Positions 36,374 to 49,834 of a stretch of DNA of 49,834 bases are shown here, in pieces (within the stretch, counting starts at the first letter, position 1; each line of letters starts with the position of its first letter). The notes beneath the pieces were generated by a model. That model saw nothing but the letters and a program-made list of their open reading frames with translations. It searched no databases and was not told the origin of the DNA. This DNA comes from Acidobacteriota bacterium (GTDB lineage: Bacteria > Acidobacteriota > Terriglobia > Bryobacterales > Bryobacteraceae): assembly GCA_026394075.1 (NCBI GenBank), contig JAPKYX010000164.1, positions 1 to 49,834 on the forward strand, read 5' to 3'. The translations under genes were made by a program, and so were the position numbers.

Positions 36374-37282
36374 CTACTGGATGTAGCCCAGTTCGCGGAG
36401 CCCGTTGCGTGGCTGCTCGCTATCAAAGATGGCGAAGGCTGCTTTCTGACGGCCATTCTCGAGCGCTACGCCATACGGCGGATCGCCATGCGGGAAGGTC
36501 TTCTTCAGCAGTTCCAGATCGTTCGACACGCCAGCCTTGAACTTGGTCGTTTCCAGGAAGCCTTGCGCGAACTGGGGCACGCGGGTGGGAATGGCCACCA
36601 GGCGAGTGTCTTTCCAGTTGTGCGTTCCCAGCAACTGCGCGGCCTGATAGCAGTGCGAACATTCCGGGTCAAAGAAGTAGAGGAACACTTTGCCCTGGGT
36701 CAGCGAATAGGGCTGGCCATTGACGGTGATCGTCTCCGGGGCCTTGGTGCCGGTGTTGCGCGATGTAGCTACGCCATAGGACGCTCCCGCAAACACGGCC
36801 ACCACGCCCAGCACCAGCGCCGCGCCCTTTAAGCCTTCGCTCTTGCGCGCCCACCAACCGGCGAGTCCGGCAGCGGCCAGCATTGCGGCGTCACCCCAGA
36901 AGAAGCCGGGGCCGATCGAACGCTTCAGCCAGGGAAAGCAGCTGCAATCCGCGCCGGTCAAGGCAGTGTAGTTTATGCCGACGTAGGCCATAAAGGCCAC
37001 CAGCATGATGGCGGTCAACCAAGCCCCCCAGCGGCGGAAGCGCGGGACCAGCAGCAGCACGGCGGTGAAGGTTTCGCCGATGCCCAGCGCCAGCGTAAAC
37101 GGCAGCGCCAGCGGACCTGGGACCTTCATCTGGGTGAGCTTGGCCGACCAGTCAATCGGGTCCGTGATCTTCCACACTCCGGCCGAGGCAAACAGCACCG
37201 CCAATAGAATCGCGCACGCCGTCGCCGCAACCGTCTTCCACGCCGGCATGTCGAGCGCAGCGGACTGGCTCGGATATGCCAT
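36374..37282 (-). CDS. MauE/DoxX-like membrane protein fused to a thioredoxin-like domain
   Basis: A 302-residue protein. Residues about 15-165 form four membrane helices in the MauE/DoxX layout (FASAGVWKITDPIDWSAKL, LGIGETFTAVLLLVPRF) with a Cys-x-Cys in GADCSCFPW. After another helix, the exported C-terminal domain has a thioredoxin-like redox motif FFDPECSHCYQAAQLL. This suggests transfer of reducing equivalents or disulfide handling across the membrane, as MauE does for methylamine dehydrogenase maturation. No mau genes are nearby. AGGAAAG just upstream of the ATG at 37282 fixes the start. It diverges from the amidohydrolase with ten bases between starts. Confidence 0.78.
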   Translation of the reverse strand: MAYPSQSAALDMPAWKTVAATACAILLAVLFASAGVWKITDPIDWSAKLTQMKVPGPLALPFTLALGIGETFTAVLLLVPRFRRWGAWLTAIMLVAFMAYVGINYTALTGADCSCFPWLKRSIGPGFFWGDAAMLAAAGLAGWWARKSEGLKGAALVLGVVAVFAGASYGVATSRNTGTKAPETITVNGQPYSLTQGKVFLYFFDPECSHCYQAAQLLGTHNWKDTRLVAIPTRVPQFAQGFLETTKFKAGVSNDLELLKKTFPHGDPPYGVALENGRQKAAFAIFDSEQPRNGLRELGYIQ

Positions 37283-37292
37283 ACTTTCCTGC

Positions 37293-38915
37293 ATGTTATC
37301 CATTGTATTCTTGCTGACCACCGCTTCGGGACTAGCCCAGACGGCGGACCTGGTTGTTGAGAACGCCCAAGTGTATACCGTAGACGCGGCAAAGCCCAAA
37401 GCGTCTGCTTTTGCCGTTAAAGATGGCAAGTTTATCGCAGTCGGTACCGACGTGAAAAAGCACATCGGGCCCCAGACGCTGAAGATCGACGCGCAAGGTG
37501 CCGCCATCATCCCGGGGCTGATCGATTCTCACGTCCACATGCGCAGCCTGGGCGACATGCTGGAGACGATGGACCTGCGCGGAGTTGCCTCTATCGAAGA
37601 GGTCGCCCGCCGCGTGAAGGAGACGGCCGCCAAGCTGCCCAAAGGCACCTGGATCCGCGGCCGCAACTGGGACCAGACCAACTGGGGCGGCAAGTTTCCG
37701 GTGGCCGCTGATCTCGACAAAGTCGCGACGGAACATCCGGTCTATTTGACGCGCGTCGACGGTCACGCCGGCTGGGGCAATTCGCTGGCCATGGCGGCGG
37801 GTGGCGTCACTAAGGCGTCGGAGGACCCCAAGGGCGGGCAGATCATCCGCGATGCGGCCGGTAATCCGACGGGCATTTTGGTGGACCGGGCGCAGGCCAT
37901 GGTGTCGCGCCGGATTCCGCCGCTGACCGACGAACAGGTGGAGGCCCGGCTGAAGCGCGCCGCGCAGGAGTGCGCACGTTTGGGCATGACCAGTGTGCAC
38001 GATGCGGGCGCGGGCCGTCAGGAACTGGAAGCGTATCGACGCTTGATCGCCAAAGGGCAGTTGCCCGTGCGGATCAACATGATGATCGCGGGCGCGGGCG
38101 AACTGTGGGAGGACTACCTGAAGAAGGGGCCCGAGATCGGTGACAAGCTGACGGTGCGGTCGATCAAGCTGGTGGCTGATGGGGCGATGGGCTCTCGTGG
38201 CGCGGCGTTCTTCCAGCCCTATTCGGACGACAAGCAGAACTCCGGCCTGCTGATCCTGCAAAAGGAGTACATCCGCGATGTGGCCAAGGACGCGGTGGCC
38301 AAAGGCTTCCAGGTGGCCACGCACGCCATCGGCGACAAGGCCAACCGGACGGCGCTCGAAGCCTATGGCGAAGCGCTCCAAGGCAAGAAGGACCGCCGCT
38401 TCCGCATTGAGCACGCACAGGTAGTCTCGCTGCCTGATTTCAAGCTCTACGCCGACTTTGCCGTGATCGCCTCACTGCAATCGACGCACGCCACCAGTGA
38501 CATGCGCTGGGCGCAGGACCGCCTGGGTCCGGACCGCTTGCTAGGTGCCTGGGCTCCGCGCCGCTTTCTGAATGCGGGCGTGCGCATCGCCAATGGCTCA
38601 GACTTCCCGGTGGAAGATCCCAACCCATTCTGGGGCCTTTACTCCGCCATCACACGCCAGGACCATGCCGGCAACCCGCCCGGCGGCTTCATGCCCAGCG
38701 AAAAGCTCTCCCGCGTCGAGACCTTAAAGAGCTGGACCTTCGACGGTGCGTATGCGGCCTTTGAAGAAGACAAGAAAGGCTCCATCACCCCGGGCAAAGT
38801 GGCGGACTTCCTGGTGCTCACCAAAGACGTCATGACGATTCCGGAAAAGGAGATCCTCACCACGCTGCCGAAGTTGACGGTGCTGGGTGGTGAGGTGGTG
38901 TACGAGAAGAAGTAG
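37293..38915 (+). CDS. Exported amidohydrolase family 3 (YtcJ-like)
   Basis: A 540-residue protein with an export signal (LSIVFLLTTASGLAQ) and the amidohydrolase core. Metal ligands His80-x-His82 are in GLIDSHVH; further ligand or catalytic positions are in ATHAIGD, RIEHAQ and NGSDFPVEDPN. Family features DLRGVASIEEV, WIRGRNWDQ and GSITPGKVADFLVL are clear. Members hydrolyse amide or imine bonds of unknown physiological substrates. Export is typical of the acidobacterial members I know. The long upstream frame is an extension into the divergent gene. There is no clear terminator after the stop. Confidence 0.88.
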   Translation: MLSIVFLLTTASGLAQTADLVVENAQVYTVDAAKPKASAFAVKDGKFIAVGTDVKKHIGPQTLKIDAQGAAIIPGLIDSHVHMRSLGDMLETMDLRGVASIEEVARRVKETAAKLPKGTWIRGRNWDQTNWGGKFPVAADLDKVATEHPVYLTRVDGHAGWGNSLAMAAGGVTKASEDPKGGQIIRDAAGNPTGILVDRAQAMVSRRIPPLTDEQVEARLKRAAQECARLGMTSVHDAGAGRQELEAYRRLIAKGQLPVRINMMIAGAGELWEDYLKKGPEIGDKLTVRSIKLVADGAMGSRGAAFFQPYSDDKQNSGLLILQKEYIRDVAKDAVAKGFQVATHAIGDKANRTALEAYGEALQGKKDRRFRIEHAQVVSLPDFKLYADFAVIASLQSTHATSDMRWAQDRLGPDRLLGAWAPRRFLNAGVRIANGSDFPVEDPNPFWGLYSAITRQDHAGNPPGGFMPSEKLSRVETLKSWTFDGAYAAFEEDKKGSITPGKVADFLVLTKDVMTIPEKEILTTLPKLTVLGGEVVYEKK

Positions 38916-39032: not shown

Positions 39033-39299
39033 ATGAGCATGATCCTGGAATTGCCGAACGATGTCGAGGCCGCACTCGCGTCTCAGGCGCGCGCGGCGCA
39101 GATGCCGACCGAGCAGTATCTGGCCCAATTGGTGGAGCGCGCCCTCGACAATCGTCGCCAATTGGCCAGTGAGCACCTGGGTTCTCACTTGGCGGAGATG
39201 GCCGAGCTAGTCTTGCCTGGGACCACTCCCGCTCAAATGGAAGCCGCGCTTGATGAGGCGCTGGACGCAATCCGGCCTCAGCGCAACTGGGTACCGTGA
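39033..39299 (+). CDS. Antitoxin-like small protein of a PIN toxin pair
   Basis: An 88-residue acidic protein starting MSMILELPNDVEAALASQAR, a ribbon-helix-helix-like N-terminus (strand then two helices, AQMPTEQYLAQLVERAL) as in many type II antitoxins. A C-terminal Glu/Leu-rich toxin-binding tail follows. Its stop overlaps the toxin start as GTGA (39296-39299), the usual antitoxin-first order. AAGGTCC precedes the ATG. It should bind both its own promoter and the PIN protein. Confidence 0.75.
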   Translation: MSMILELPNDVEAALASQARAAQMPTEQYLAQLVERALDNRRQLASEHLGSHLAEMAELVLPGTTPAQMEAALDEALDAIRPQRNWVP

Positions 39300-39742
39300 G
39301 GGTAGTCCTCGACACCAACATCATCGTCCGCGCCAATCCCCAAACCAGTCCGGGCGGTTTGGCCAAAGATCTTCTGTTGACCGTCGCTACCGGGCCGCAC
39401 CGGTTGGTTCTATCGCCAGCTATCCTGGCCGAGGTGGGACGTGTATTGCGCTATGCTCACGTTCAAAAGCGCTGGCCATTGTCGGATGAAGCTATCCAGA
39501 CCTATCTCACCTTGCTTGAAGAATCGGCGCTGATGGTCGTGCTTCCAGCCGAGATGCCGCTGGTGGTGAGTGACCCGGATGACGACCCCATCCTCCAGAC
39601 CGCTATCCTCGGCCGAGCCGATGTTCTTTGCTCCCGCGATGCCGCATTCCGGGCACCTGCTGTCGAGCATGTTTGCCGCACGAATGGTATCCGTGTTCTG
39701 GATGATGTGACCTTGATGCAAGAGCTAAGGAAGTCCGCTTAG
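39296..39742 (+). CDS. PIN-domain ribonuclease toxin
   Basis: A 148-residue PIN protein of the type annotated as a putative toxin component. The N-terminal acidic site is in VVLDTNIIVRA, a conserved Glu in LSPAILAEVGRVL, the Asp cluster in SDPDDDPIL, and a final acidic residue in LCSRDAAF. The quartet matches Mg-dependent RNases. The start is a GTG overlapping the antitoxin stop by four bases. The overlap and order indicate a toxin-antitoxin module. RNA targets cannot be read from the sequence. Confidence 0.85.
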   Translation: MRVVLDTNIIVRANPQTSPGGLAKDLLLTVATGPHRLVLSPAILAEVGRVLRYAHVQKRWPLSDEAIQTYLTLLEESALMVVLPAEMPLVVSDPDDDPILQTAILGRADVLCSRDAAFRAPAVEHVCRTNGIRVLDDVTLMQELRKSA

Positions 39743-39787: not shown

Positions 39788-41116
39788 CTACAGCCGCTCC
39801 AGCCGCGTGCGGGAGTCGCCGAATTGGTCGAGCTTGATATCGAAGCGGTCCAGCAGTGACAGGTAGAGGCTGCACATCTTGCGCTTGTCTTCGCTTTCGC
39901 CCAAATAGTTGAGCGTCCGGCCGGTCTTGAGCGTGCCGCCCAGGCCGCCGGCCAGCACCAGCGGCAGGCGCGTGTTGTCGTGCTTGCGGCCGATCCAGAG
40001 GTTGGACAGGAACATCAGGCAGCTGTGATCCAGCACCGTGCCGTCACCTTCCTTCATCGCTTCGAGGCGCGACGCCAGATACGCGAACTGGCTCAAGTGG
40101 AAGCGGGCGATCCGTTCATAGCCATCGGAGGCGTTGTTGTGCGACGCCGCGTGGTGGCCTTCCTTGACGTTCAGGAACGGGTAGTACATGGCAGACAGAT
40201 CCCGCGAGATCAGCAGTGAGGCGACGCGGGTTTTGTTGGTCTGGAACGCAATAGCGATGATGTCGCACATCAGCCGCGCGTGGTCCCGCAGATCTTCCGG
40301 GAGTCCATTGGCGGGCCGGTCCATGGTGGCGGCTGGGGTGTTGCGCGCTTTCGCTTGATCATCGGCCTGCGTCTTGTCGCGGCGCATACTCTCGACCCGC
40401 TTCTCCACTTCGCGCACGCTGGTGAGATACTCATCCAGCTTGTTCTTGTCACTGGCGCTGATCTTGCGCGTCAGGCTCTGCGCTCGGTCCTTCACGCGAT
40501 CCAGAATGCTGATGTTCAGCAGGCTGCCGCGGTTGTCAAACAGGTTGTCCCAGGCGAGTGACGGATAGACCTCCACCGGCACCGGCGAATCCGGGCTCTG
40601 CCAGGAGATGTGGGAGCTGTAGGCCATCGAGAAGTTGGTCTCGTGGTAGCCGGTCATGGGCTGCTCACAAGCCAGCACGATGCTCGATTGCGGGACGTCG
40701 TCGCTGACGCGACTGGCGATCATCTGGTCCACACTGATGCCGGAGTGGATGACGGCGCCTTTCGAGATCCGCGCGCCAGAGAGCAGGCTGCCGGTTTGGG
40801 CGGGGTGGATGCCTTGGCCGGTCAACGCCTTCACAAACAGGCCGTCGATGACGTTGATCTTTTCCTTCAATGGCTCCAGCGGCTGAAGCGTTTTGCTTAG
40901 CTTCATGGCCGCGCCTTCGCCTTCGGCGCTCCAGTGGTCTTCGTTGACGCCATTGCCCAGAAACACGACGCCGAAGCGCTTGGGGAACGCGGCGGCCGGT
41001 GGCGTATCTGCCAGCGCATGCATGGATTCGAGCCACGGCAAGGCCACCGTGCAACCCGCGCCGCGCAGGACCGCGCGCCGGGAAATGGAACTGGGGACCG
41101 GAGGTGTCTTCTTCAT
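39788..41116 (-). CDS. Exported DUF1552 protein
   Basis: A 442-residue protein with a Tat signal (ISRRAVLRGAGCTVALPWLE) and DUF1552 features: RFGVVFLGNGVNEDHWSAEG, GQGIHPAQTGSLLSGA and SIVLACEQP. It is related in layout to DUF1501 and other alkaline-phosphatase-like folds, but the catalytic role is unknown. AAGGAG sits ten bases before the ATG. It lies 32 bases downstream of the DUF1592 gene in the same direction, the pairing seen in Planctomycetes and Acidobacteriota, so the two probably act together in the periplasm or at the surface. Confidence 0.87.
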   Translation of the reverse strand: MKKTPPVPSSISRRAVLRGAGCTVALPWLESMHALADTPPAAAFPKRFGVVFLGNGVNEDHWSAEGEGAAMKLSKTLQPLEPLKEKINVIDGLFVKALTGQGIHPAQTGSLLSGARISKGAVIHSGISVDQMIASRVSDDVPQSSIVLACEQPMTGYHETNFSMAYSSHISWQSPDSPVPVEVYPSLAWDNLFDNRGSLLNISILDRVKDRAQSLTRKISASDKNKLDEYLTSVREVEKRVESMRRDKTQADDQAKARNTPAATMDRPANGLPEDLRDHARLMCDIIAIAFQTNKTRVASLLISRDLSAMYYPFLNVKEGHHAASHNNASDGYERIARFHLSQFAYLASRLEAMKEGDGTVLDHSCLMFLSNLWIGRKHDNTRLPLVLAGGLGGTLKTGRTLNYLGESEDKRKMCSLYLSLLDRFDIKLDQFGDSRTRLERL

Positions 41117-41148
41117 CTGCGGTGGGCTCCTTGCAAGACAATGATCTC

Positions 41149-44100
41149 CTAATCGGTGGCGGCCGGAGTTTCCGGCAGCCGGCGGTGGCGGAACTGTTGG
41201 CTGGTGACGATCGCTTCCACCAGGGCGCTGAGGCGGCAGCCGTTGGCTTGGGCTTGGGCCGCCATACGCTCAACCAGAGCCTCATCGGAAAGCTGAAGCG
41301 ACCGGTTCAGCGCAAAGGCCAGCAGCTTGCGGCTGATGTTCAACACAAAATCCTTCTCGCGCCGTTCGCGGATGAAGCGCTGCAAGCCTTCGACACCGGA
41401 TCCCGTGAGTCCACCGGGATAGCTGACTTGAGTCTCGACGGCGCGACCAGCCAGATCCTTGGTGCGAACGTCACCCACCGGTCCATAGCCTTCAAACGCC
41501 AGCCCGAACGAATCGATGCGCGCATGGCAGGCTGCGCAAAGGGCATTCTCGCGATGCTTGGTCAGCATGTCGCGCACGGGCAGTTCGGAGGTTGATTCGT
41601 CATTCGGCAACTCAGGCACAGCAGGCGGAGGTGGCGGCACCACTTCGCCCAGCACTCGCTGCACCACCCAGTTGCCGCGCTTGACCGGGGAGGTGCGGAG
41701 GCCCGGCGAATTCTGGGTGAGAAAGACCGCCATTGGCAGCAACCCGCCCCGTCCGTAAGGCCGAGCGTCCTCGATGCGGACCCACTGGTCCGCCGGACCC
41801 GTCACGCCGGGAATGCCGTAGTGCTTGGCCAACGCGGGATTGACGAAGGTGTGGCGGCCATAGAGCAGATCCAGCAAGGAACGGTCATTCGCGAACGCAT
41901 CCCCGAGCAGCCGGACTGGTTCCTGGAACATCGCTGACCGAAGCTCATTGTTGAAAGCGGGAAAGCGCGCGCGATCGACCGAGTTGTTGGTTTCAAACTG
42001 GCGGAAGCCCAGCCAGTTGCCGGTGAACTCCGTGGCCAGGCCGCGTATGCGCTGATCCTTCAACATCCGCCGCGCCTGCGCGAGCAACACTTCCGGCCGC
42101 TGCAAGTCGCCTGCGGTGACGTGCCGCAGCAGTTCCTGATCCGGCATGCTGGCCCACAGGAAGTAGCTCAACCGGCTGGCCAGCGCGTCATTCGAGAGTG
42201 GGCGGTGGGCAGGCGGTTGCCCGGCTTTGGGTGCTCGAACAGGCGCGGCTTGGGGCCGCATGCTGCTGGATAGATCGAGGCGATAGAGAAAGTCCGGGGC
42301 CATCAGGATGCTCACCAGACACTCCCGCAGCGCGGCTTCGTGGGTTAACTCATTCTTGCTGCGCAGGGTGCGGTAGTAGGCGGTGAGATCTTGGCGCTCA
42401 CTGGGGTCGAGCGGACGGCGGTAGGCGCGGGCGGCGAACGCGAGCAGGGCGTCCAGGTGCTTGGGCTCGGCGGTCTTCCGCTGCTGCTCCAACGCGCGGA
42501 GGGTTGCGTTGATGCCGTCGTAGTGCTCGCGGATGGCCTGCGGGGCGATGGGATCGTTGCCGGGGTCGGCGGCGGCCTTCTTGAGGTACGCATCGCGCAT
42601 GTCGGAGATCACTCCCGCGTCAGTAATGCCCCGCCCTACCGGGCGCTCACTGGCGGATTCCGCGCCCTTGCCTTGCACTTCACCACTCTGGTTGAAGAAG
42701 TACTGGATCCAGGTGCGCGCGGTGAAGTCGGCGATATAGTCGAACTCATTCCACAGCCGGTCCAGTTCGCGGCGGCCCTCGTCGTCCAGGATCAGCTCCA
42801 TCAATGGCTGGTCATCGCGGTAGAAGCCGAGCACGCTGTGATAGCCCGCGCTCAGCAGACGGCCCTTGTCTTCGGAGTCATCCGGGAAGTAGCGCCCGCG
42901 TTCGGTGATGTAGAACTTATCCGGGAAGACCGAGGCGAAGCGGGCAAAGGCCGCCTGGTAACGCTCCCGTTGCGCGGCGGGCACGACGAGGTCGGGGTCC
43001 CCAGCGCGATCCCGGGCCATCAACGCGGCCCAACGCGGAGCGGCTTCCTGATGGAGCCCGGCATAGCGCGGAATGGCCGGCACATCGGGCGGCGGATCGG
43101 TGTCGTTGCGCAGTGCCGCCGGGTCACTATCGCGGCGGTGGGTGGCGAACTGCTTCAGCTTCCAGTTGAGCAGCGGTTGGGACCCAGCAGGCAGGCCGCG
43201 GACCTTGGGCGCGGCATACTGCATGCCCGTGTGGGCGCGGAGCTTCGTCACGAAGGCGTCCATCGCGCGGCATCCGGCGGTCAACTGCTCCGGCTGGCCG
43301 GGCGCGGGAAGGGCCTTCCACATTGCCTGAAGCTTGGCCACTGGACCCAGCGCGTCCGGCTCATTCAGAATCTGCCACACCTGCGGAAGATACCGCCGGC
43401 TCAGCCCGGCCTCGGCAGCAATGCTCTCCAACGTCGCGCGGGGCAGGCCAAAGGCAGCTCGATGCTGGTAGCGCCAGGCGGCGGCAAAATAGGCGGTGTG
43501 TTGGGTTGGTTGGCGGAAGTAAAAGCTGATGATCTGCTGGATGGCGTACTTTTCGCGATCGGTCTCCACCATCATCGGGTGCGGCGAAAACTGGATGGTG
43601 CCGGGCGCCAGCACCATGTGCGTCGAGATGTCGCGGGCCGCTTGCAGATATTTATTCAGCAGCGCCGGAGACATGGTCAGCGATTCGCCAGAGTTGTCGA
43701 AGCCAGCTGGATTGGCCGGATCGATGGGAAACTCGCGCGTGACGTCCAGGTTCTGGCCGGTCAGGTCGCGGATGGTGTAGTTGTATTCGGCATTGCTCAG
43801 ACGGCGCGCGGGCACCAGGCCGGGGTCACCCGCTGATCTCTTGATCTCCGCCGCGCGGACCTGTTCGATCCAGCTGATCACGCGGTCCGTGTCGGCCGCC
43901 GGTGGCGACGGCAAGGGCTTGGGCGGCATGTCGCGCGCCCGCAGACGTTCCATCACCAGGGCCCAGCGCGGAAACTCATGCGTGACGGAGCCTAGCGTCG
44001 TATAGGCAGTCAGATCAAACTGGGCCGCTGGAGTTTTGCCGCTGTGGCAGCCCACGCAATGCTTCTGCAGGAACGGCCGAATCGTTGTGTTGAGTTGCCC

Positions 44101-44172
44101 GGGCAGAGACGCGGGCGGCGCCGCCGCCACTGGTAGCGTCAAGAGAGAGGCCAAAGCCCAGGCGCGCATCAC
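41149..44172 (-). CDS. Large exported c-haem protein with DUF1587-DUF1595-DUF1592-DUF1588-DUF1585
   Basis: A 1007-residue protein with an export signal. A first haem motif, Cys39-Val-Gly-Cys42-His43 (KHCVGCHSGK), lies in a Planctomycete-type cytochrome c domain. DUF1587 follows at about 120-190 (LSNAEYNYTIRDLTGQ) and DUF1595 at about 570-630 (FAARAYRRPLDPSER). DUF1592 (about 665-800) has LSYFLWASMPDQELL and DUF1588 (about 800-905) has RGGLLPMAVFLTQNSPG. A second haem motif, Cys879-Ala-Ala-Cys882-His883, is in DUF1588. DUF1585 is at the C-terminus. A central region of about 370 residues (195-565) is not part of the standard set. The start is GTG 44172 or ATG 44169. The role is unknown; a surface electron-transfer or degradative complex is possible. 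Confidence 0.87.
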   Translation of the reverse strand: MMRAWALASLLTLPVAAAPPASLPGQLNTTIRPFLQKHCVGCHSGKTPAAQFDLTAYTTLGSVTHEFPRWALVMERLRARDMPPKPLPSPPAADTDRVISWIEQVRAAEIKRSAGDPGLVPARRLSNAEYNYTIRDLTGQNLDVTREFPIDPANPAGFDNSGESLTMSPALLNKYLQAARDISTHMVLAPGTIQFSPHPMMVETDREKYAIQQIISFYFRQPTQHTAYFAAAWRYQHRAAFGLPRATLESIAAEAGLSRRYLPQVWQILNEPDALGPVAKLQAMWKALPAPGQPEQLTAGCRAMDAFVTKLRAHTGMQYAAPKVRGLPAGSQPLLNWKLKQFATHRRDSDPAALRNDTDPPPDVPAIPRYAGLHQEAAPRWAALMARDRAGDPDLVVPAAQRERYQAAFARFASVFPDKFYITERGRYFPDDSEDKGRLLSAGYHSVLGFYRDDQPLMELILDDEGRRELDRLWNEFDYIADFTARTWIQYFFNQSGEVQGKGAESASERPVGRGITDAGVISDMRDAYLKKAAADPGNDPIAPQAIREHYDGINATLRALEQQRKTAEPKHLDALLAFAARAYRRPLDPSERQDLTAYYRTLRSKNELTHEAALRECLVSILMAPDFLYRLDLSSSMRPQAAPVRAPKAGQPPAHRPLSNDALASRLSYFLWASMPDQELLRHVTAGDLQRPEVLLAQARRMLKDQRIRGLATEFTGNWLGFRQFETNNSVDRARFPAFNNELRSAMFQEPVRLLGDAFANDRSLLDLLYGRHTFVNPALAKHYGIPGVTGPADQWVRIEDARPYGRGGLLPMAVFLTQNSPGLRTSPVKRGNWVVQRVLGEVVPPPPPAVPELPNDESTSELPVRDMLTKHRENALCAACHARIDSFGLAFEGYGPVGDVRTKDLAGRAVETQVSYPGGLTGSGVEGLQRFIRERREKDFVLNISRKLLAFALNRSLQLSDEALVERMAAQAQANGCRLSALVEAIVTSQQFRHRRLPETPAATD

Positions 44173-44241
44173 GAAGCTATGTTCTCATGGCGCACCGGTT
44201 CCGTGCGTTCAGCAGCCCAATCGCCGGTCCACGGACGGGCA

Positions 44242-44247
44242 TAGAAT
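44242..44247 (+). promoter_or_regulatory. -10 box TAGAAT six bases before a GTG start
   Basis: TAGAAT (five of six to TATAAT) ends exactly six bases before the GTG at 44254 with GTTCGT between them. There is no ribosome-binding run, so the message should be leaderless. It sits in the 81-base gap between the two divergent export cassettes. Confidence 0.55.
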
Positions 44248-44253
44248 GTTCGT

Positions 44254-46434
44254 GTGCTTTACCGTCGTCATTTTCTGTGCTTGCTCGCCGCGAGTGGTTT
44301 CGCGCCGGCCCAGACGGTGGAGATCAGCTTTGAACGAGACGTGCTGTCGCTGCTGACGACGAAGGGCTGCAATAGTTCAGCGTGTCATGGCTCACCCGCG
44401 GGGCAGAGCGGCTTCAAGTTATCGCTCTACGGCGCGGATGCGGCGGCCGATCACGCGATGATCACCACCGCTCACAAGGGCCGGCGTGTGGATCTGGCGA
44501 AGCCTGAGAACTCGCTGCTGTTGCGGAAGCCCACGTTCGCGTTGGCTCACGGCGGTGGGCACGTGATCGAAGAATCCAGCGATGAATACCGGACGCTGCT
44601 GGAATGGTTGCGCCAAGGTGCGCAGCGCAGTTCGAACGGACCACGCATCGTGCGGCTGGAGGTCCAACCGCGCGAACGCATTCTAAGTCCCGGTGCCCAG
44701 TTGCAGTTGAGCGTGGTGGGCTTCCTGTCCGACGGCAACACCGTGGACCTGACGCGCCAGGTGCGCTACGCCGTCAATGATGAAGCGGTGGTGGCGGTAT
44801 CCGCTGCGGGAGGCGTCACGGCAAAAGGCCGCGGCTTGACCGTGGTGATGGCGCGCGGCGTCGGCAAAGCGGCCACGGCGCAGTTTATCGTCAGCGATAC
44901 CCCACCTGTCCAGCAGGTGTCCGCGGCGGGCAACTTCATTGATGCCGAGGTTTTCGCCAAGCTGCGGCAGGTGGGCATTCAGCCTTACCCGGAAGCAAGC
45001 GACCGCGCGTTTGTGCGCCGTGTCTATCTCGACCTGATCGGCCTGTTGCCCACCGTCGAGGAAACGTCCCGCTTTCTGGCGGACTCACGATCCGACAAGC
45101 GGGCCCGCTTGATCGACCAGCTGCTGGATCGACCGGAGTACGTCTCCCATTGGCTGGTGAAGTTTGAGGACTGGTTCCGCAACTCCCAGTATTACTCGCA
45201 AGGCCGCACCAACTACGCCTTTAAGCACTGGCTGGCGGAGGCGATCCGGGCCGACAAGCCCTACAACCAGACCGTCCGCGAGATGTTGACCGCCACCGGC
45301 GACACCACGTCTCACCCGGCCGGCAACTTCTGGCACCCGGCCATCGACTTCATGCTGAAGACGTTTGACGTCTCCAAAGCCACGCCGACCGTGGCGCGTC
45401 TATTTTTGGGGCAGCGGATTGAATGCGCGGAATGCCACAATCACCCGCTCGAGAATCTGACGCAGGACGATTTCTTCGGCATGGCGGCCTTTATGGGCCG
45501 CACGAAAGTGAAGCACGGCTACGCGCAGTACCGGCGCGTCTGGTACAACTCGCGCGAGGGCGAGGTGATGCATCCCAATACCAAGAAGCCCGTGGCCCCG
45601 CGATTCCTGGATGGCACCGAACCGGCGATCGGCGAGCAGCAGGACCGGCGCGAAGTTCTGGCGGACTGGATCCTGGGTGCGCAAAAGACACAGTTCGCCC
45701 GGGCCACGGTGAATCGCGTGTGGGCCGAATATTTCGGCCAGGGCATTGTCGAACCGGCGGATGATTTCCGGTCCACCAACATGCCGACGCACCCGGCGCT
45801 GCTGGATGGTTTGGCGGAAGAGTTTATCGCCCACGGTTACCAGTTCAAACCGCTGCACCGGCTGATCCTGAATTCGAAGGTCTACCAGTTGTCCTCTCGC
45901 GCCCCCGGCCGCACCGGTGGCACGGACCCGCTGGAGCGGACGCTGCTGGCCCGGTACGAACCGCGCAAGCTGCCGGCGGAAGTATTGCTGGATGCGCTGG
46001 GCCAAGTGACCGGGGTGCCCCAGGAGTTCAACAACTACCCGGCCGGAACTACGGCCAAGGATCTGGTGGCGTCGATTGGGGCGACGTACTTTCTGACGAC
46101 CTTCGGCCATCCCCGCCGCGACACCATGGAGCCGCGCACCCAGGCGCCGTCGTTGGCGCAGGCCCTGCACTTGATGAATGCCGAGGCCGTTCGCGAAAAG
46201 GTGGAGTCTCCCAAGAACGTCCTGGCCACGTTGCTGGAGCAAACGCTCGATGACCGGACGGTGGCCGATCAGCTTTATCTGCGAGCCCTGGCGCGCGCCC
46301 CGTCCTCCGGCGAATGGGGCAACATCGAAGCCTTTTTGGCCAGTGAGAAGCAGGCCGGACGCAGCCGTCGGCGGGCCTTCGAGAATCTGCTGTGGGCGGT
46401 GCTGAACACCCGGGAGTTTCAAATCAACCAATGA
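44254..46434 (+). CDS. Exported DUF1549/DUF1553 protein with cytochrome-like motifs and Big2 domain
   Basis: A 726-residue protein starting at GTG with a Tat-like signal (YRRHFLCLLAASGFAPA). A CX4CH site, Cys39-Cys44-His45 (GCNSSACHGS), opens the mature protein. A bacterial Ig-like (Big2) domain lies at about 130-220, DUF1549 at about 235-440 (FVRRVYLDLIGLLPT, WLVKFEDWFRNS) with Cys391-Ala-Glu-Cys394-His395 (CAECHNHP), and DUF1553 at about 470-720 (NRVWAEYFGQGIVEP, FNNYPAGT). The family is of unknown function and usually paired with DUF1501 genes. That is the case here, with a four-base ATGA overlap to the next gene. Confidence 0.88.
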   Translation: MLYRRHFLCLLAASGFAPAQTVEISFERDVLSLLTTKGCNSSACHGSPAGQSGFKLSLYGADAAADHAMITTAHKGRRVDLAKPENSLLLRKPTFALAHGGGHVIEESSDEYRTLLEWLRQGAQRSSNGPRIVRLEVQPRERILSPGAQLQLSVVGFLSDGNTVDLTRQVRYAVNDEAVVAVSAAGGVTAKGRGLTVVMARGVGKAATAQFIVSDTPPVQQVSAAGNFIDAEVFAKLRQVGIQPYPEASDRAFVRRVYLDLIGLLPTVEETSRFLADSRSDKRARLIDQLLDRPEYVSHWLVKFEDWFRNSQYYSQGRTNYAFKHWLAEAIRADKPYNQTVREMLTATGDTTSHPAGNFWHPAIDFMLKTFDVSKATPTVARLFLGQRIECAECHNHPLENLTQDDFFGMAAFMGRTKVKHGYAQYRRVWYNSREGEVMHPNTKKPVAPRFLDGTEPAIGEQQDRREVLADWILGAQKTQFARATVNRVWAEYFGQGIVEPADDFRSTNMPTHPALLDGLAEEFIAHGYQFKPLHRLILNSKVYQLSSRAPGRTGGTDPLERTLLARYEPRKLPAEVLLDALGQVTGVPQEFNNYPAGTTAKDLVASIGATYFLTTFGHPRRDTMEPRTQAPSLAQALHLMNAEAVREKVESPKNVLATLLEQTLDDRTVADQLYLRALARAPSSGEWGNIEAFLASEKQAGRSRRRAFENLLWAVLNTREFQINQ

Positions 46435-47666
46435 CGTCACGCCGCAACTTTCTCCGCATCGGGGCCTCGGCATTGGGCCTGGACCTGCCGCAACTACTGG
46501 CCGCCACGGGACCGGCGAAGAACTGCATCATCTACTTCCAGGAAGGCGGCGCTTGCCAGCACGACAGCTTTGACCCGAAGCCCGATCAACCGGCGGAAAT
46601 TCGCGGCGCGTGGAAGTCCATCCCGACGGCGCTGCCCGGCGTCCACTTCTCGGAGCTGCTGCCACGGTGCGCGGCGCAGGCGAACAAGTTCGCGGTGATC
46701 CGTTCGATGTACTCCAAGGAAGCGATCCACGAGAAGGCCAAGCAGTACATCTTCTCTGGCTCGCGGCCCAATAATGCGTTCAAGCATCCGGTGTTCGGCT
46801 CCGTGGTGGCCAAGGAACTGGGGCCTCGCAACGGGGTGCCGCCGTTTGTCTGCATTCCACGGCGCGACATCTGCGCGGACGCCGGCTTTCTCGGCGCGGC
46901 CTATGATCCGTTCATTACGGGCGACCCCGGCAAGAAGGAGTTCCGGGTCCAGGATCTCAGCCTGCCCGCCACCGTGTCGCTGGAAGAGTCGGCATCGCGG
47001 GAACGGCTGCTGCGGTCGATGGATGAAGAGCTGCGGCAGGTGGAGAAATCGAAGCTGCTGGAAGGGATGGACTACTTCTACCAGAAGGCATTTGATCTGG
47101 TGGTCTCTGAACCGGCGCGCAAGGCCTTCAACATCGAAGAGGAGCCCGCAAAGCTGCGCGACCAGTATGGCCGGAACTCCGCCGGGCAAGGGGCTTTGCT
47201 AGCGCGGCGGCTGATTGAGGCGGGCGTGCGGCTGGCCGCAGTCTTCCAAGGTGGGTACGATGCCCATGGCGGCATTGTCGAATCCAGCACGAGCATCTTC
47301 CCGGTCTTTGACCAAGCGTTCTCTACGCTGATTGAAGATCTGGAACAGCGGGGGTTGCTGGAATCGACGCTGGTGCTAGCGATCGGCGAGTTTGGACGGA
47401 CGCCGCACATCAACCACTCCGCAGGTCGGGACCACTGGCCGGGCGTCTTCTCGATTGCGGCGGCAGGCGCGGGCATTCGGGGCGGCCAGATTATCGGCTC
47501 CAGCGACGCGCAAGGGGGCGCACCGCAGGATCGCCCGCTGTCCATTGAAGACCTGGGGGCGACGGTCTACAAAAAGCTGGGGATTGATCCGCACAAGGAG
47601 TACCGCAGCAATGGGCGCCCGGTGAAGATGAACGACGGCGGTGTGCCGATCCGGGAACTGTTCTGA
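46431..47666 (+). CDS. Exported DUF1501 protein
   Basis: A 411-residue protein with a Tat signal (TSRRNFLRIGASALGLDL) and DUF1501 features of the alkaline-phosphatase-like clan: IIYFQEGGACQHDSFDPKPD, the RSMYSKEAIHEKAKQYIFSG block, GGYDAHGGI and IGEFGRTPHINHSAGRDHW. Asp and His residues at family metal-site positions remain. The substrate is unknown; sulfatase- or phosphatase-like chemistry is only suggested by the fold. The start overlaps the DUF1549/1553 stop (ATGA), and its own TGA shares one base with the next ATG. Confidence 0.88.
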   Translation: MTSRRNFLRIGASALGLDLPQLLAATGPAKNCIIYFQEGGACQHDSFDPKPDQPAEIRGAWKSIPTALPGVHFSELLPRCAAQANKFAVIRSMYSKEAIHEKAKQYIFSGSRPNNAFKHPVFGSVVAKELGPRNGVPPFVCIPRRDICADAGFLGAAYDPFITGDPGKKEFRVQDLSLPATVSLEESASRERLLRSMDEELRQVEKSKLLEGMDYFYQKAFDLVVSEPARKAFNIEEEPAKLRDQYGRNSAGQGALLARRLIEAGVRLAAVFQGGYDAHGGIVESSTSIFPVFDQAFSTLIEDLEQRGLLESTLVLAIGEFGRTPHINHSAGRDHWPGVFSIAAAGAGIRGGQIIGSSDAQGGAPQDRPLSIEDLGATVYKKLGIDPHKEYRSNGRPVKMNDGGVPIRELF

Positions 47667-49396
47667 TGCGCGGCTTGATCCTGCTGCTCCCGCTGGCCAT
47701 GCTGGGTGGCCCGCATGTGCTGCGCGTGATGCCGCTGGGCGGTCAAGCGGGCACGACGGTGGAGGTGGAGTTCACGGGCAGCGATCTGGAGGCAGTGCAA
47801 GAGGCACGCTTCGATTCGCCCGATCTCGCTTGGGTGGAGACCGTGGCGGCCACGGCCAAATCCGTGAAGGGCCGCATCCGGATCACACCACAGGCGGCGC
47901 TGGGCCCGCACCGGGTGCAGCTGATCTCGCGCACCGGACGCAGCAATTCCTGGTTGTTCAACGTCAACCAGTTCCCCAACGTTTTGCGAGCGACGGGCCG
48001 TCAGGCCATCACTTTGAAGCCCCAGGTGATCCAGGGGCAGATGAAGGGGCTGGCCGATCAACATTGGTTCACGTTCCCGGCCCAGGCGGGAGAACGCTGG
48101 TTGTTCGACCTGCAATCGATCGAACGCGGCGGGTTCCTGGAGTGTTCCCTGACGCTCTACGACGAAGCGGGCCGCGAGGTGGCGCACAACGAGGATCAGG
48201 ACGAGTTTCTGGAGACGCCGCGGTTGGCGCAGGTCTTCGCGCGCGCAGGCAACTACACGCTGAAGATCGACCAGTACCGGGGCCCCCAAGGCGTGGCGTG
48301 CGGTGAGAATTGTGTCTACCAGTTGCAGATTTCGCAGTTGCCGGTGGTGACGGGGATGTACCCGCTGGGGGCCAGGCCCGGTAGCCGCTATTCGGTCCAT
48401 GTCTCGGGCGAAGCGCTGGCTGGCACCACCGGTATGGTTCTGGCGCGCGCCCGTGGTGCCGAACACTATCGTTTGCCGTTCCCCTACACGCTGCCGGCCG
48501 ACGGCAGCGACGGAGATCCGCAGCGGATTGAAGCCCGCCGCGTGAAGGCAACAGCGTCCGGCGTCGATGGCGAATTTGAGCTGCCCTCTGCGGCCAAACC
48601 CGGACTCTGGCGGTTGTGGCTGCAGACCCGCACCGGGTGGGCCGAAGCGATGACCGCGGACATCAGCACCGGTGAAGCGATCGACGGACAGTTATTGAAG
48701 GGTCCGGGGCGACATCCCGTGGACCTGCGAGCAGGCGAGCCGTTCCATGCCTGGACACTGGCCGCGCAGTTGGGACTGCCCGAGATCGATACCGTGTTGG
48801 AACTCTGGAGCGCGGACGGCAAGCTGCTGGCTGAACACGATGACCTGATGAGCGGCCAAGGAACGGTGATCGGCAACCCGGACAGCAACCTTTTCTATCT
48901 GCCGCAGAAGTCGGAGAAGGCCACCCTGGTGGTTCGCGACCGCACGGACCGCACTGGCCCCACCTATGCCTACCGCCTGCACGTGCGCCCCCAAGCGCCG
49001 TCGTTCCAGCTGCTGGCGGAACCGGAAGAGCTATCGGCGGCGGCGGGTACGGAGACCGAAGTGACCGTGCTGCTGATCAAGGAGCCGGGGTTTGAGAAGG
49101 CGGTGGATGTGTGGGTGGAAGGCCATCCGGAGACCCGCGGCCACTTCCGTGCCGACCAGCATTTTGGCCCCTCGGGCGACGGCGACAACATCAACATTCC
49201 GGCGGTGAAGCTGAAGCTGAAAGTCCCGGCCAGTGCCGCTACCGGAGACTATCCATTCCAGTTGCGCGGCCGAGCGGCGGACGGCGCGGGCGGCCTGGTG
49301 GAAGGGTTGAGCACGCTGTGGATCGGGCCCCAAGGCAACCGCAACGACACCCGGCGGCCAATGCCGCAGCCCACCATCTACGTCTTGCCGCGCTGA
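47666..49396 (+). CDS. Exported protein with IPT-like and pre-peptidase C-terminal (PPC) domains
   Basis: A 576-residue protein with a short export signal (MRGLILLLPLAMLGG). An IPT/TIG-like domain comes first (VMPLGGQAGTTVEVEFTGSD, about 18-95). A PPC-type domain follows at about 115-225: HWFTFPAQAGERWLFDLQS, LYDEAGREVAHNEDQ, AGNYTLKIDQY. Further beta-sandwich domains are seen, including a second PPC-like copy at about 350-445 (LELWSADGKLLAEHDD). These are binding modules, not enzymes, so it probably carries carbohydrate or protein ligands at the cell surface. It is translationally coupled to the DUF1501 gene (TGATG, shared A). Confidence 0.75.
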   Translation: MRGLILLLPLAMLGGPHVLRVMPLGGQAGTTVEVEFTGSDLEAVQEARFDSPDLAWVETVAATAKSVKGRIRITPQAALGPHRVQLISRTGRSNSWLFNVNQFPNVLRATGRQAITLKPQVIQGQMKGLADQHWFTFPAQAGERWLFDLQSIERGGFLECSLTLYDEAGREVAHNEDQDEFLETPRLAQVFARAGNYTLKIDQYRGPQGVACGENCVYQLQISQLPVVTGMYPLGARPGSRYSVHVSGEALAGTTGMVLARARGAEHYRLPFPYTLPADGSDGDPQRIEARRVKATASGVDGEFELPSAAKPGLWRLWLQTRTGWAEAMTADISTGEAIDGQLLKGPGRHPVDLRAGEPFHAWTLAAQLGLPEIDTVLELWSADGKLLAEHDDLMSGQGTVIGNPDSNLFYLPQKSEKATLVVRDRTDRTGPTYAYRLHVRPQAPSFQLLAEPEELSAAAGTETEVTVLLIKEPGFEKAVDVWVEGHPETRGHFRADQHFGPSGDGDNINIPAVKLKLKVPASAATGDYPFQLRGRAADGAGGLVEGLSTLWIGPQGNRNDTRRPMPQPTIYVLPR

Positions 49397-49465
49397 CCTT
49401 GGGGCCTAACTCAAGTAGCTGAGTGACGCCGTCGCAGCGGCTTGATATCCTGTGGACCAATTGCT

Positions 49466-49834
49466 GTGAATCTCCTAACGCGTCGGCGGCTTCTCGAACG
49501 GACGACCCTTGGTTTCGGGTCCATGGTGCTGGCCGACCTGCTGCATGCTCAGCAGCGCTCGCACTTTGCGCCGAAGGCGAAGGCGGTGATCCAACTGGTC
49601 CAGAACGGCGGCCCCAGCCAGATGGACTTGTTCGATCCTAAGCCGGAGCTGTTGCGCCTGGCGGGCAAACCGTTGCCCGGCGGCGTTGAGATCCATCAGC
49701 CGAACAACGTCAACACGCTTTTGCCCAGCCCCTTCGCCTTCAAGAAGCACGGGCAGTGCGGCATGGACATCTCGGAGATGCTGCCTCACACAGCGCGCAT
49801 CGTGGACGACCTGACGTTCATCCGCAGCATGCAC
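49466..49834 (+). CDS. Exported DUF1501 protein, second copy (3' end cut by window edge)
   Basis: The frame from the GTG at 49466 gives 123 residues to the window edge. A Tat signal (LTRRRLLERTTLGFGSMVLA) precedes VIQLVQNGGPSQMDLFDPKP, the DUF1501 opening with the Gly-Gly-x-Ser-Gln-x-Asp pattern, and FKKHGQCGMDISEMLPHTA. It lies 69 bases after the PPC gene and continues the same cassette. It is a second, divergent DUF1501 paralogue: the first has Gly-Gly-Ala-Cys-Gln-His-Asp at this place. TATCCT at 49445-49450 is a possible -10. Confidence 0.87.
   Translation, partial: MNLLTRRRLLERTTLGFGSMVLADLLHAQQRSHFAPKAKAVIQLVQNGGPSQMDLFDPKPELLRLAGKPLPGGVEIHQPNNVNTLLPSPFAFKKHGQCGMDISEMLPHTARIVDDLTFIRSMH

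What the first reader, a model, noticed from the sequence alone, without database searches (positions are those of the whole stretch)
39788..49834. Back-to-back export cassettes pairing haem-motif proteins with DUF1501/DUF1552 proteins
Leftward DUF1592-DUF1552 and rightward DUF1549/1553-DUF1501-PPC-DUF1501 share one 81-base intergenic region. Each pairs a large exported protein carrying CxxCH-type sites with a Tat-exported alkaline-phosphatase-like-fold protein. The two family sets are normally described separately and both have unknown function. Their juxtaposition with a PPC binding protein suggests a common extracytoplasmic process, possibly redox-linked polymer degradation.
Basis: partly seen in the sequence, partly recalled or inferred. 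Interest (0 to 1): 0.5.

Follow-up and report, generated by a model that had tools for sequence, protein, structure and literature searches.

The report
Paired haem and phosphatase-fold export modules
A soil bacterium carries, back to back, two versions of what looks like one widespread but unstudied two-protein export system, a haem protein plus a phosphatase-shaped partner whose usual reactive residue appears to be replaced by histidine; the parts are known, the back-to-back placing looks like local shuffling, and the shared blueprint is the interesting point.

Summary
In detail: leftward DUF1592-type + DUF1552 and rightward DUF1549/1553 + DUF1501 (+ PPC-like + second DUF1501), 81 bases apart. 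The pairing of each haem-motif protein with its partner is already in print (He et al. 2017). Head-to-head placing is rare but not unique: 1 of 13 DUF1592-DUF1552 cassettes in this genome, 2 of 90 in relatives, 0 of 81 in named loci. It looks recent: in a genus-mate the orthologous cassette faces a flavin-type oxidoreductase and a five-CxxCH cytochrome instead.

The stronger result is that the two cassette kinds look like versions of one two-gene module. DUF1501 and DUF1552 are homologous along most of their length, with alkaline-phosphatase-superfamily character. The haem proteins share an N-terminal cytochrome c domain and, more weakly, C-terminal segments. Partners co-diversify.

Where sulfatases have their catalytic cysteine, both partner families seem to have an invariant histidine (74 of 74, 168 of 168); that placement rests on weak alignments. 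Standard sulfatase/phosphatase chemistry is therefore doubtful. Cbp2D of Cellvibrio, with a similar domain order, is needed for growth on cellulose, which favours a redox role in polymer attack; LPMO_10 was not found in this genome. Function remains inferred.

The parts
39788..41116 (-). DUF1552 (HXXSHH) protein, 442 aa, Tat-type N terminus, alkaline-phosphatase-superfamily fold (predicted); H104, H326, H379 invariant in 168 aligned sequences
   Evidence: Pfam; AlphaFold2 model pLDDT 82.7 pTM 0.86; PDB comparison best Z 16.3; conservation; RR motif
41149..44172 (-). Haem-motif protein, 1007 aa: N-terminal cytochrome c domain (C39, C42, H43, M82), PSD3, a stretch of roughly 350 residues missing from short members, PSD5, PSD4 (DUF1592), PSCyt3 (CAACH 879-883), PSD2
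   Evidence: Pfam; alignments; profile against PDB; 75 of 75 long members have two CxxCH
44173..44253 (.). 81-base divergent intergenic region; no sigma-70-like promoter match in 43900-44500
44254..46434 (+). Big_2-PSCyt2 (DUF1549)-PSD1 (DUF1553) protein, 726 aa, haem motifs CNSSACH (39) and CAECH (391)
   Evidence: Pfam; motif listing
46392..47666 (+). DUF1501 protein, 424 aa, Tat-type N terminus; H113, D290, H292, R336, H348 invariant in 74 aligned sequences, E333 in 72
   Evidence: Pfam; profile links to sulfatases; conservation
47666..49396 (+). PPC-like protein, 576 aa; distant homologues lie beside PSD1 and/or DUF1501 genes of this sub-type in several relatives
   Evidence: below cut-off; L264, L265, L266, L268, L029; the L264 and L266 homologues have no Pfam match
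49442..49834 (+). First 131 residues of a second DUF1501 gene; rest on contig C235, followed by PSCyt2-PSD1
   Evidence: Pfam

Best explanation
Both cassettes are versions of one two-gene redox module. Gene 1 is a cytochrome that mostly lacks a Tat-type motif (so probably Sec-exported): a class-I-like haem c domain, His/Met by its invariant residues, joined to a large helical body that carries a second CxxCH. Gene 2 is a protein with a Tat-type signal and alkaline-phosphatase-superfamily character which keeps invariant residues of metal-ligand type but seems to have histidine where sulfatases have their catalytic cysteine. Shown here by computation: homology of the two partner families; homology of the N-terminal cytochrome domains and, more weakly, of C-terminal segments; strict pairing; co-diversification; export signals by motif; the invariant residues. 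Inferred: the two proteins act together outside the cytoplasm, the phosphatase-fold protein holding a metal site that binds or activates a polymer or sugar-like substrate, and the cytochrome moving electrons to or from it, in the way suggested for Cbp2D of Cellvibrio on cellulose. The genome carries 13 modules of one kind, about 50 of the other and 2 DUF1800-DUF1501 pairs, presumably for different substrates. The back-to-back placing came from gain or exchange of a DUF1501-type cassette beside a DUF1592-type one, at a spot where a genus-mate carries other redox genes.
For: DUF1501 against DUF1552: hhalign probability 97.5, E 7.8e-12, 370 columns. Haem proteins: N-terminal domains probability 98.2, E 2.9e-14; with that domain cut off, collinear segments PSD2~PSD1 (85.5, 5.7e-6 in the narrower cut; 60.6, 8.3e-5 in the wider) and PSD4~PSCyt2 (31.5, 5e-4); at E 0.01 PSCyt1 matches 32 of 43 DUF1592-type and 33 of 60 PSD1-type proteins, and PSD2 and PSD5 match 4 and 2 of 60 PSD1 proteins. 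DUF1552 fold: the 50 entries listed are all enzymes of the phosphatase superfamily (names given by the call, grouping recalled), Z 15.1-16.3. DUF1501: 15 of 17 PDB sequence matches are of that superfamily, best E 0.0055; against a sulfatase profile 94.6, E 6.8e-8 over 106 columns. H113, D290, H292, R336, H348 74 of 74 and E333 72 of 74; DUF1552 H104, H326, H379 168 of 168. Mantel r within this genome 0.87 (40 DUF1501-type pairs) and 0.76 (11 of the 13 DUF1592-type pairs). Cytochrome c assembly family PF01578 matched 3 times in the genome. Genus-mate locus: oxidoreductase and five-CxxCH cytochrome in place of the window's first DUF1501-type cassette, same second DUF1501. Cbp2D required for cellulose growth (PMC12542752 abstract); its X183 domain is a haem c that can reduce LPMOs (PMC8981238 passages).
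Against: No activity, haem content or complex has been measured for these proteins here. C-terminal homology of the haem proteins is weak pair by pair (probability 31-86), one matching segment (PSD5 to the end of PSD1, 49.0) is out of order, and in the reverse scan none of 43 DUF1592-type proteins matched PSD1 or PSCyt2 at E 0.01. Foldseek's own matches to the DUF1552 model are modest (TM-scores 0.34-0.43 for the five at E 0.001). DUF1552 did not match sulfatases by profile (0.9). The histidine-for-cysteine placement rests on spacing and two weak local alignments (E 0.024, probability 2; E 0.13, probability 0.5); the global runs did not give it, and the glycine used for the spacing is kept in only 130 of 168 DUF1552. 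20 of 46 PSD1 proteins here show only one haem-like motif. No glycan gene is conserved beside the long DUF1592 cassettes. Cbp2D's own sequence was not compared, and the passages read name no DUF1552 or DUF1501 partner for it.
Confidence: 0.45

Rival explanations
1. The partner is an ordinary secreted hydrolase (sulfatase/phosphatase-like) and the haem protein an electron carrier for a separate oxidative step; the pair attacks a substituted polymer in two steps.
For: Fold and metal-ligand-type residues of the superfamily; He et al. 2017 note sulfatase genes often near PSCyt genes in some of their genomes; sulfatase matches lie close to modules on contigs C134, C293 and C234 here.
Against: No Ser/Thr/Cys conserved at 95% near the expected nucleophile site in 74 DUF1501 and 168 DUF1552 sequences; a histidine is invariant there instead (placement weakly supported).
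Confidence: 0.2
2. The two cassettes at this locus form one functional supercluster acting on one substrate.
For: DUF1501-type cassettes lie within 1 kb of DUF1592-type ones more often than the 1-8 kb rate predicts: 7 observed, 0.6 expected (named loci); 6 against 1.9 (relatives, p 0.014); 2 against 0.9 (own genome, p 0.21). Head-to-head pairs exist in L238, whose DUF1592 is in another clade than the window's, and in L210, whose DUF1592 is of a shorter type not on that tree.
Against: Orientation and sub-type vary; the close-neighbour label needs 8 changes for 10 rows, against 9.6 on average when shuffled; the genus-mate G002 has other genes at this place; this genome's second close pair (C301) is not kept in G001, whose orthologue (97%) has a BNR-repeat gene upstream; relatives of the window's DUF1501 cassette (L264, L265, L266) show no DUF1592-DUF1552 in the fetched stretch.
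Confidence: 0.2
3. The phosphatase-fold partner is a non-catalytic binding or assembly protein (a pseudo-enzyme) for the cytochrome.
For: Apparent lack of the usual nucleophile with the fold retained; co-diversification of partners.
Against: H113, D290, H292 and H348, of metal-ligand type, are unchanged in 74 of 74 DUF1501, which suggests a working metal site; a Tat-type signal suggests a folded, possibly metal-loaded protein.
Confidence: 0.2

Closest known systems
PSCyt2/PSCyt3 gene pairs of Verrucomicrobia (He et al. 2017, PMC5615132; section 13 and passages read)
   Same: Same domain families; [quoted passage not shown] Big_2 among the extra domains; function unknown
   Different: That section does not join the two kinds as homologues, nor describe head-to-head placing, a PPC-like third gene or the histidine at the nucleophile place (its figure S7 and Text S1 were not seen)
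Cbp2D of Cellvibrio japonicus and TERTU_2913/3803 of Teredinibacter (PMC8981238 section 5 and passages; PMC12542752 abstract and passages; PMC10916295 section 7 and passages)
   Same: Cytochrome c domain (X183), a small DUF domain (DUF1587 in the 2021 paper; printed DUF1687 in the 2024 legend), then a C-terminal X132 domain with CxxCH, like the window's leftward protein
   Different: Cbp2D also carries CBM2, FN3 and a YceI-like domain; the passages read name Cbp2E, not a DUF1552 protein, as partner; its sequence was not compared here
DUF1800-DUF1501 operons with bacterial chitin synthases (PMC5122149, passages read)
   Same: A DUF1501 with a twin-arginine motif and a larger partner gene, kept as a unit and linked to a polysaccharide gene
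   Different: DUF1800 partner; only a weak C-terminal link to the haem proteins (E 0.0013-0.0036)
Sulfatase / LTA synthase / nucleotide pyrophosphatase branch of the alkaline phosphatase superfamily
   Same: Predicted fold of DUF1552 and C-terminal profile of DUF1501
   Different: Catalytic Cys/Ser/Thr position appears to be histidine; Tat-type signal; haem-protein partner

Membership tests
PSCyt3/DUF1592-DUF1552 module | PSD3, PSD5, PSD4, PSCyt3 and PSD2 in one protein | tested here: met
   All five above cut-off in the window protein; in 43 of 43 scanned members at E 0.01
PSCyt3/DUF1592-DUF1552 module | Same-strand DUF1552 next to it | tested here: met
   41116/41149 in the window; 13 of 13 in the genome
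PSCyt2/PSD1-DUF1501 module | PSCyt2 and PSD1 in one protein with a DUF1501 gene next to it | tested here: met
   for the window; 50 of 54 PSD1 rows in the genome
PSCyt2/PSD1-DUF1501 module | N-terminal PSCyt1 domain (not universal: 33 of 60) | tested here: not met
   No PSCyt1 match in the window protein at E 0.01; a CX4CH motif lies there instead
Alkaline phosphatase superfamily (fold) | Common fold | tested here: met
   DUF1552 model, Z 16.3, rmsd 3.6, 259 aligned; DUF1501 by profile only
Alkaline phosphatase superfamily (mechanism) | Ser/Thr/formylglycine nucleophile | tested here: not met
   Histidine in 74 of 74 and 168 of 168 at the place found by spacing and weak local alignments
Alkaline phosphatase superfamily (mechanism) | Bound divalent metal ions | not testable with these tools
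   Invariant D, H and nearly invariant E residues suggest it
Cbp2D-like redox protein | Cytochrome c domain, then DUF1587, then CxxCH in the C-terminal domain | tested here: met
   domains of Cbp2D from PMC8981238 section 5 and Figure 1 legend
Cbp2D-like redox protein | Carbohydrate-binding module or YceI-like domain | tested here: not met
   No such Pfam match in the window protein
Cbp2D-like redox protein | Direct sequence similarity to Cbp2D | not tested
   Cbp2D sequence not available here; 7B21 (its X183) was not among matches at E 1
LPMO electron donor | An AA10 LPMO in the genome to be reduced | tested here: not met
   PF03067 not found in the 96.9% complete genome
PPC domain protein | PF04151 above cut-off | tested here: not met
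   No PF04151 match in the window protein at E 1; two homologues below cut-off

The most novel reading that the evidence does not exclude
DUF1501 and DUF1552 are one nucleophile-swapped branch of the alkaline phosphatase superfamily, with an invariant histidine in place of the catalytic Cys/Ser/Thr. Coupled to a co-evolved haem protein they form a single, widespread and much amplified class of extracytoplasmic redox enzymes with a chemistry not yet described (metal site in a phosphatase fold fed by, or feeding, a c-type cytochrome), of which Cbp2D-like cellulose proteins are relatives.
Probability: 0.3. Interest if true: 0.75.

Novelty: new member of a known kind. Interest (0 to 1): 0.42.

Why it matters
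These unknown families are heavily amplified in this Bryobacterales-like genome (13 + about 50 + 2 modules), and relatives of the long DUF1592 protein turned up in Acidobacteriota, Verrucomicrobiota, Planctomycetota and Armatimonadota records. If all are one kind of two-part redox enzyme with a histidine-swapped phosphatase fold, several DUF families become one testable problem, and the cellulose phenotype of Cbp2D gives a first handle on it.

Tried and rejected
LPMO_10 reduction as the local role: no such gene found in the genome. A conserved third gene around long DUF1592 cassettes: of the 165 nearest flanking ORFs that my filters kept, 164 were scanned (82 upstream, 82 downstream; one long upstream ORF, L069:18-9899, left out); no family exceeded 6 of 82. 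Known fold for the whole DUF1592 protein: no Foldseek match at E 0.001; best VIA-align row a cytochrome c peroxidase, Z 8.8 over 83 residues spread over 26-845; the other domains were not folded alone, so nothing is claimed about a new fold. Solved relatives by sequence: none for the window DUF1592 and only chance-level matches for its profile (oligoxylanase, E 0.21), its N-terminal part alone, the DUF1552 profile and one DUF1501 sequence. Sigma-70 promoter in the divergent region: none. In one search an iterated PSD1 profile drifted onto DUF1592 proteins; those labels were thrown away and sets rebuilt with a bit cut-off of 80 and no overlap. One search matched nothing because of a wrong pattern. 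One search found no sulfatase ORFs and printed a stale file; it is not used (repeated as 123, where 22 of 30 loci passed a filter that itself asks for the sulfatase signature). My reading of the histidine was noted before the test. Kamneva et al. 2012 (DUF1501 modules) is not held and is known only through passages of PMC4452313, PMC4960237 and PMC5122149. That the shared ancestry and the histidine swap are not in print rests only on the paper searches in an open-licence library.

Rows chosen: A5 holds 24 of 61 DUF1501; A8 holds 53 of 58 fragments, picked by a pattern that itself demands CxxCH and MPP (119 of 177 proteins fitted it), so invariance within A8 proves nothing; A10 holds 43 of 177; one search kept the best 80 of 250 loci; many loci end at contig ends (500 of 800 kb upstream and 434 of 800 kb downstream were available); the 80 relatives' regions come from the best-scoring part of a cut list, not a random draw. 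The 1 kb test does not correct for related loci (L067, L068 and L072 are one clade). Whether a genus-mate G001 has the window's cassette was not settled: its list of DUF1552 matches was cut.


Full report
What is there. The window is one complete contig (C275, 49,834 bases) of a 5.77 Mb, 302-contig genome. By its nearest named relatives it is a Bryobacterales-like acidobacterium (inference). The described genes are present at the stated coordinates with the stated domains. The leftward pair is a 1007-aa protein with the full PSD3-PSD5-PSD4-PSCyt3-PSD2 block and a DUF1552 protein. The rightward set is a Big_2-PSCyt2-PSD1 protein, a DUF1501 protein, a PPC-like protein and the start of a second DUF1501. 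The divergent gap is 81 bases. The PPC label is only suggestive.

The second DUF1501 is not a degraded gene. The window holds 131 residues matching residues 1-131 of the genus-mate's intact copy; contig C235 of the same genome opens with the part matching residues 143-463, followed by a PSCyt2-PSD1 gene. The real cluster is therefore most likely one DUF1592-type module facing two DUF1501-type modules in a row.

Abundance and pairing. The genome holds 13 DUF1552, 13 PSD4, 54 DUF1501 rows, 54 PSD1 rows, some of either being pieces of one gene, and 2 DUF1800, each beside a DUF1501. All 13 DUF1552 lie beside a same-strand PSD4; 50 of 54 PSD1 rows lie beside a same-strand DUF1501. The pairing is known: He et al. 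[quoted passage not shown]

Is the back-to-back placing special? In 80 named loci around long DUF1592 genes (the best 80 of 250), a DUF1501-type cassette lies within 10 kb in 10, as far as the contigs reach, and none is head to head at short distance. In 80 regions from nine relatives' genomes (90 DUF1592/DUF1552 cassettes), two head-to-head cases turn up, with gaps of 96 and 112 bases (L210, L238); in L238 the PSD1 gene is broken into three ORFs. Counting the nearest DUF1501-type cassette per kilobase, the first kilobase is enriched in named loci (7 against 0.6 expected, p 3e-6) and relatives (6 against 1.9, p 0.014), not clearly in this genome (2 against 0.9, p 0.21). On a tree of 81 long DUF1592 proteins the close-neighbour label needs 8 changes for 10 rows; shuffled labels need 9.6 on average and 37 of 500 shuffles go as low. 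The modules thus tend to settle near each other repeatedly, in changing orders.

The genus-mates are telling. In G002 the orthologues (DUF1592 86%, DUF1552 93% identical) face an oxidoreductase with a NAD_binding_8 match (the FAD-family DAO match is below its cut-off) and a small cytochrome with five CxxCH motifs (read from the sequence). Then come the orthologue of the window's second DUF1501 (88.6%) and its PSCyt2-PSD1 partner. The window's first DUF1501-type cassette sits in the place of the first two. That cassette's nearest relative found (L173/L264, 58%) stands with a PPC-like gene and no DUF1592-DUF1552 cassette in the fetched 20 kb. This genome's other close pair, on C301, is likewise not kept in G001. 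The juxtaposition is best read as a recent local event at a site that carries redox genes in either form.

The two kinds are relatives. DUF1501 and DUF1552 profiles align over 370 columns (97.5, E 7.8e-12). The haem proteins share the N-terminal cytochrome domain (98.2, 2.9e-14) and, with that cut off, collinear segments PSD4~PSCyt2 and PSD2~PSD1; a match at chance level (probability 1) also lines up the second CAxCH motifs. The six pairs of a haem-side or DUF1800 profile with a partner profile, which serve as controls, gave E 0.075-0.46. Curated models agree in part: at E 0.01 PSCyt1 matches both kinds (32 of 43 and 33 of 60), and PSD2, PSD5 and DUF1800 match a few PSD1 proteins (4, 2 and 4 of 60). 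In L029 the PSD2 match is above its cut-off (26.1 against 25.8) and overlaps the PSD1 match. Against this, none of 43 DUF1592-type proteins matched PSD1 or PSCyt2, and one segment, PSD5 to the end of PSD1, is out of order, so repeats or rearrangement are likely.

Fold and export. The DUF1552 model (pLDDT 82.7, pTM 0.86) matches LTA synthases and a sulfamidase by Foldseek (five at E 0.001, TM-scores 0.34-0.43), and sulfatases, nucleotide pyrophosphatases and phosphoethanolamine transferases by VIA-align (Z up to 16.3). DUF1501 shows the same superfamily by profile. A twin-arginine motif is found in 70 of 72 DUF1501 and 158 of 164 DUF1552, against 12 of 183 DUF1592-type and 16 of 78 PSD1-type proteins; shuffled rates are 8-12%. 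In 75 long DUF1592 proteins C39, C42, H43 and M82 are invariant. A profile of the N-terminal domain matches c-type cytochromes in the PDB: best E 0.0024, and 40 of the 42 matches at E 1 are haem c proteins by name or recall. Cytochrome c assembly genes are present.

The missing nucleophile. Sulfatases of these genomes have C-x-P-S/A-R followed by LLTG (examples). In the window's DUF1501 and DUF1552 proteins a histidine lies the same ten residues before the corresponding glycine. Local profile alignments of the N-terminal parts place H113 directly, and H104 by extension, on the sulfatase cysteine, with weak scores (E 0.024 and 0.13); global runs did not reproduce it. The histidine is invariant (74 of 74; 168 of 168), as are D290, H292, R336 and H348 in DUF1501 and H326 and H379 in DUF1552; the spacing glycine is kept in 72 of 74 and 130 of 168. 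The only Ser, Thr or Cys conserved at 95% or more are T326 in DUF1501 and S145 in DUF1552, both far from that site in sequence.

Co-diversification. Partner distance matrices correlate within this one genome, where a species tree cannot be the cause: r 0.87 for 40 DUF1501-type pairs and 0.76 for 11 DUF1592-type pairs; also 0.91 (11 pairs) and 0.78 (18 pairs) in two other genomes. The 70 named pairs (0.89) include the species-tree effect.

Function. The only experimental anchor found is Cbp2D of Cellvibrio japonicus: cytochrome c domain, DUF1587, and a CxxCH-bearing C-terminal domain, like the leftward protein. It is one of six genes reported as required for cellulose use (abstract); its cytochrome domain can reduce LPMOs. 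The 2025 authors' hypothesis is a Cbp2D-Cbp2E complex that cuts cellulose directly (passage). LPMO_10 was not found in this genome, so reduction of that LPMO type is unlikely to be the local role. I commit to an extracytoplasmic redox module acting on polymer-like substrates, with electron transfer between the cytochrome and a metal site in the phosphatase fold, at about 0.45. The steps after export are inference.

Noticed in passing
L195:3324-5700 (G002, genus-mate locus): An oxidoreductase with a NAD_binding_8 match and a Tat-like N terminus, and a c7-type cytochrome with five CxxCH, stand head to head with the DUF1592 orthologue, in place of the window's first DUF1501-type cassette.
   Followed up: partly
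L238:3596-5743 (G011): The PSCyt2-PSD1 gene of another head-to-head pair is split over three ORFs: frameshifted gene or assembly error.
   Followed up: no
L264:8327-14425, L266:7336-12717, L265:8042-12435: PSCyt2-PSD1, a PPC-like gene and DUF1501 recur together as a sub-type; an outer-membrane beta-barrel gene (PF25183) lies nearby in L265 and L266, and beside a related PSD1-DUF1501 pair in L267.
   Followed up: partly
window 39296-39742 (+): PIN-domain toxin-type gene (TIGR00305) directly beside the 3' end of the DUF1552 gene; no antitoxin looked for.
   Followed up: no
window 32347-34341 (-): PQQ dehydrogenase-type protein with a cytochrome c domain (Cytochrome_CBB3), another redox protein in the same window.
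   Followed up: no
window 36374-38915: A MauE/DoxX-type gene and an amidohydrolase gene are called on opposite strands with about 500 bases of overlap; at least one start is probably called too far upstream.
   Followed up: no
G000 contigs C134, C293, C234: Sulfatase matches lie close to DUF1552 or DUF1501-type modules (3 of the 13 own-genome rows listed, of 19 matches at E 1e-30).
   Followed up: partly
G014: 112 sulfatase matches at E 1e-30 in one order-level relative, also rich in DUF1552 (21).
   Followed up: no
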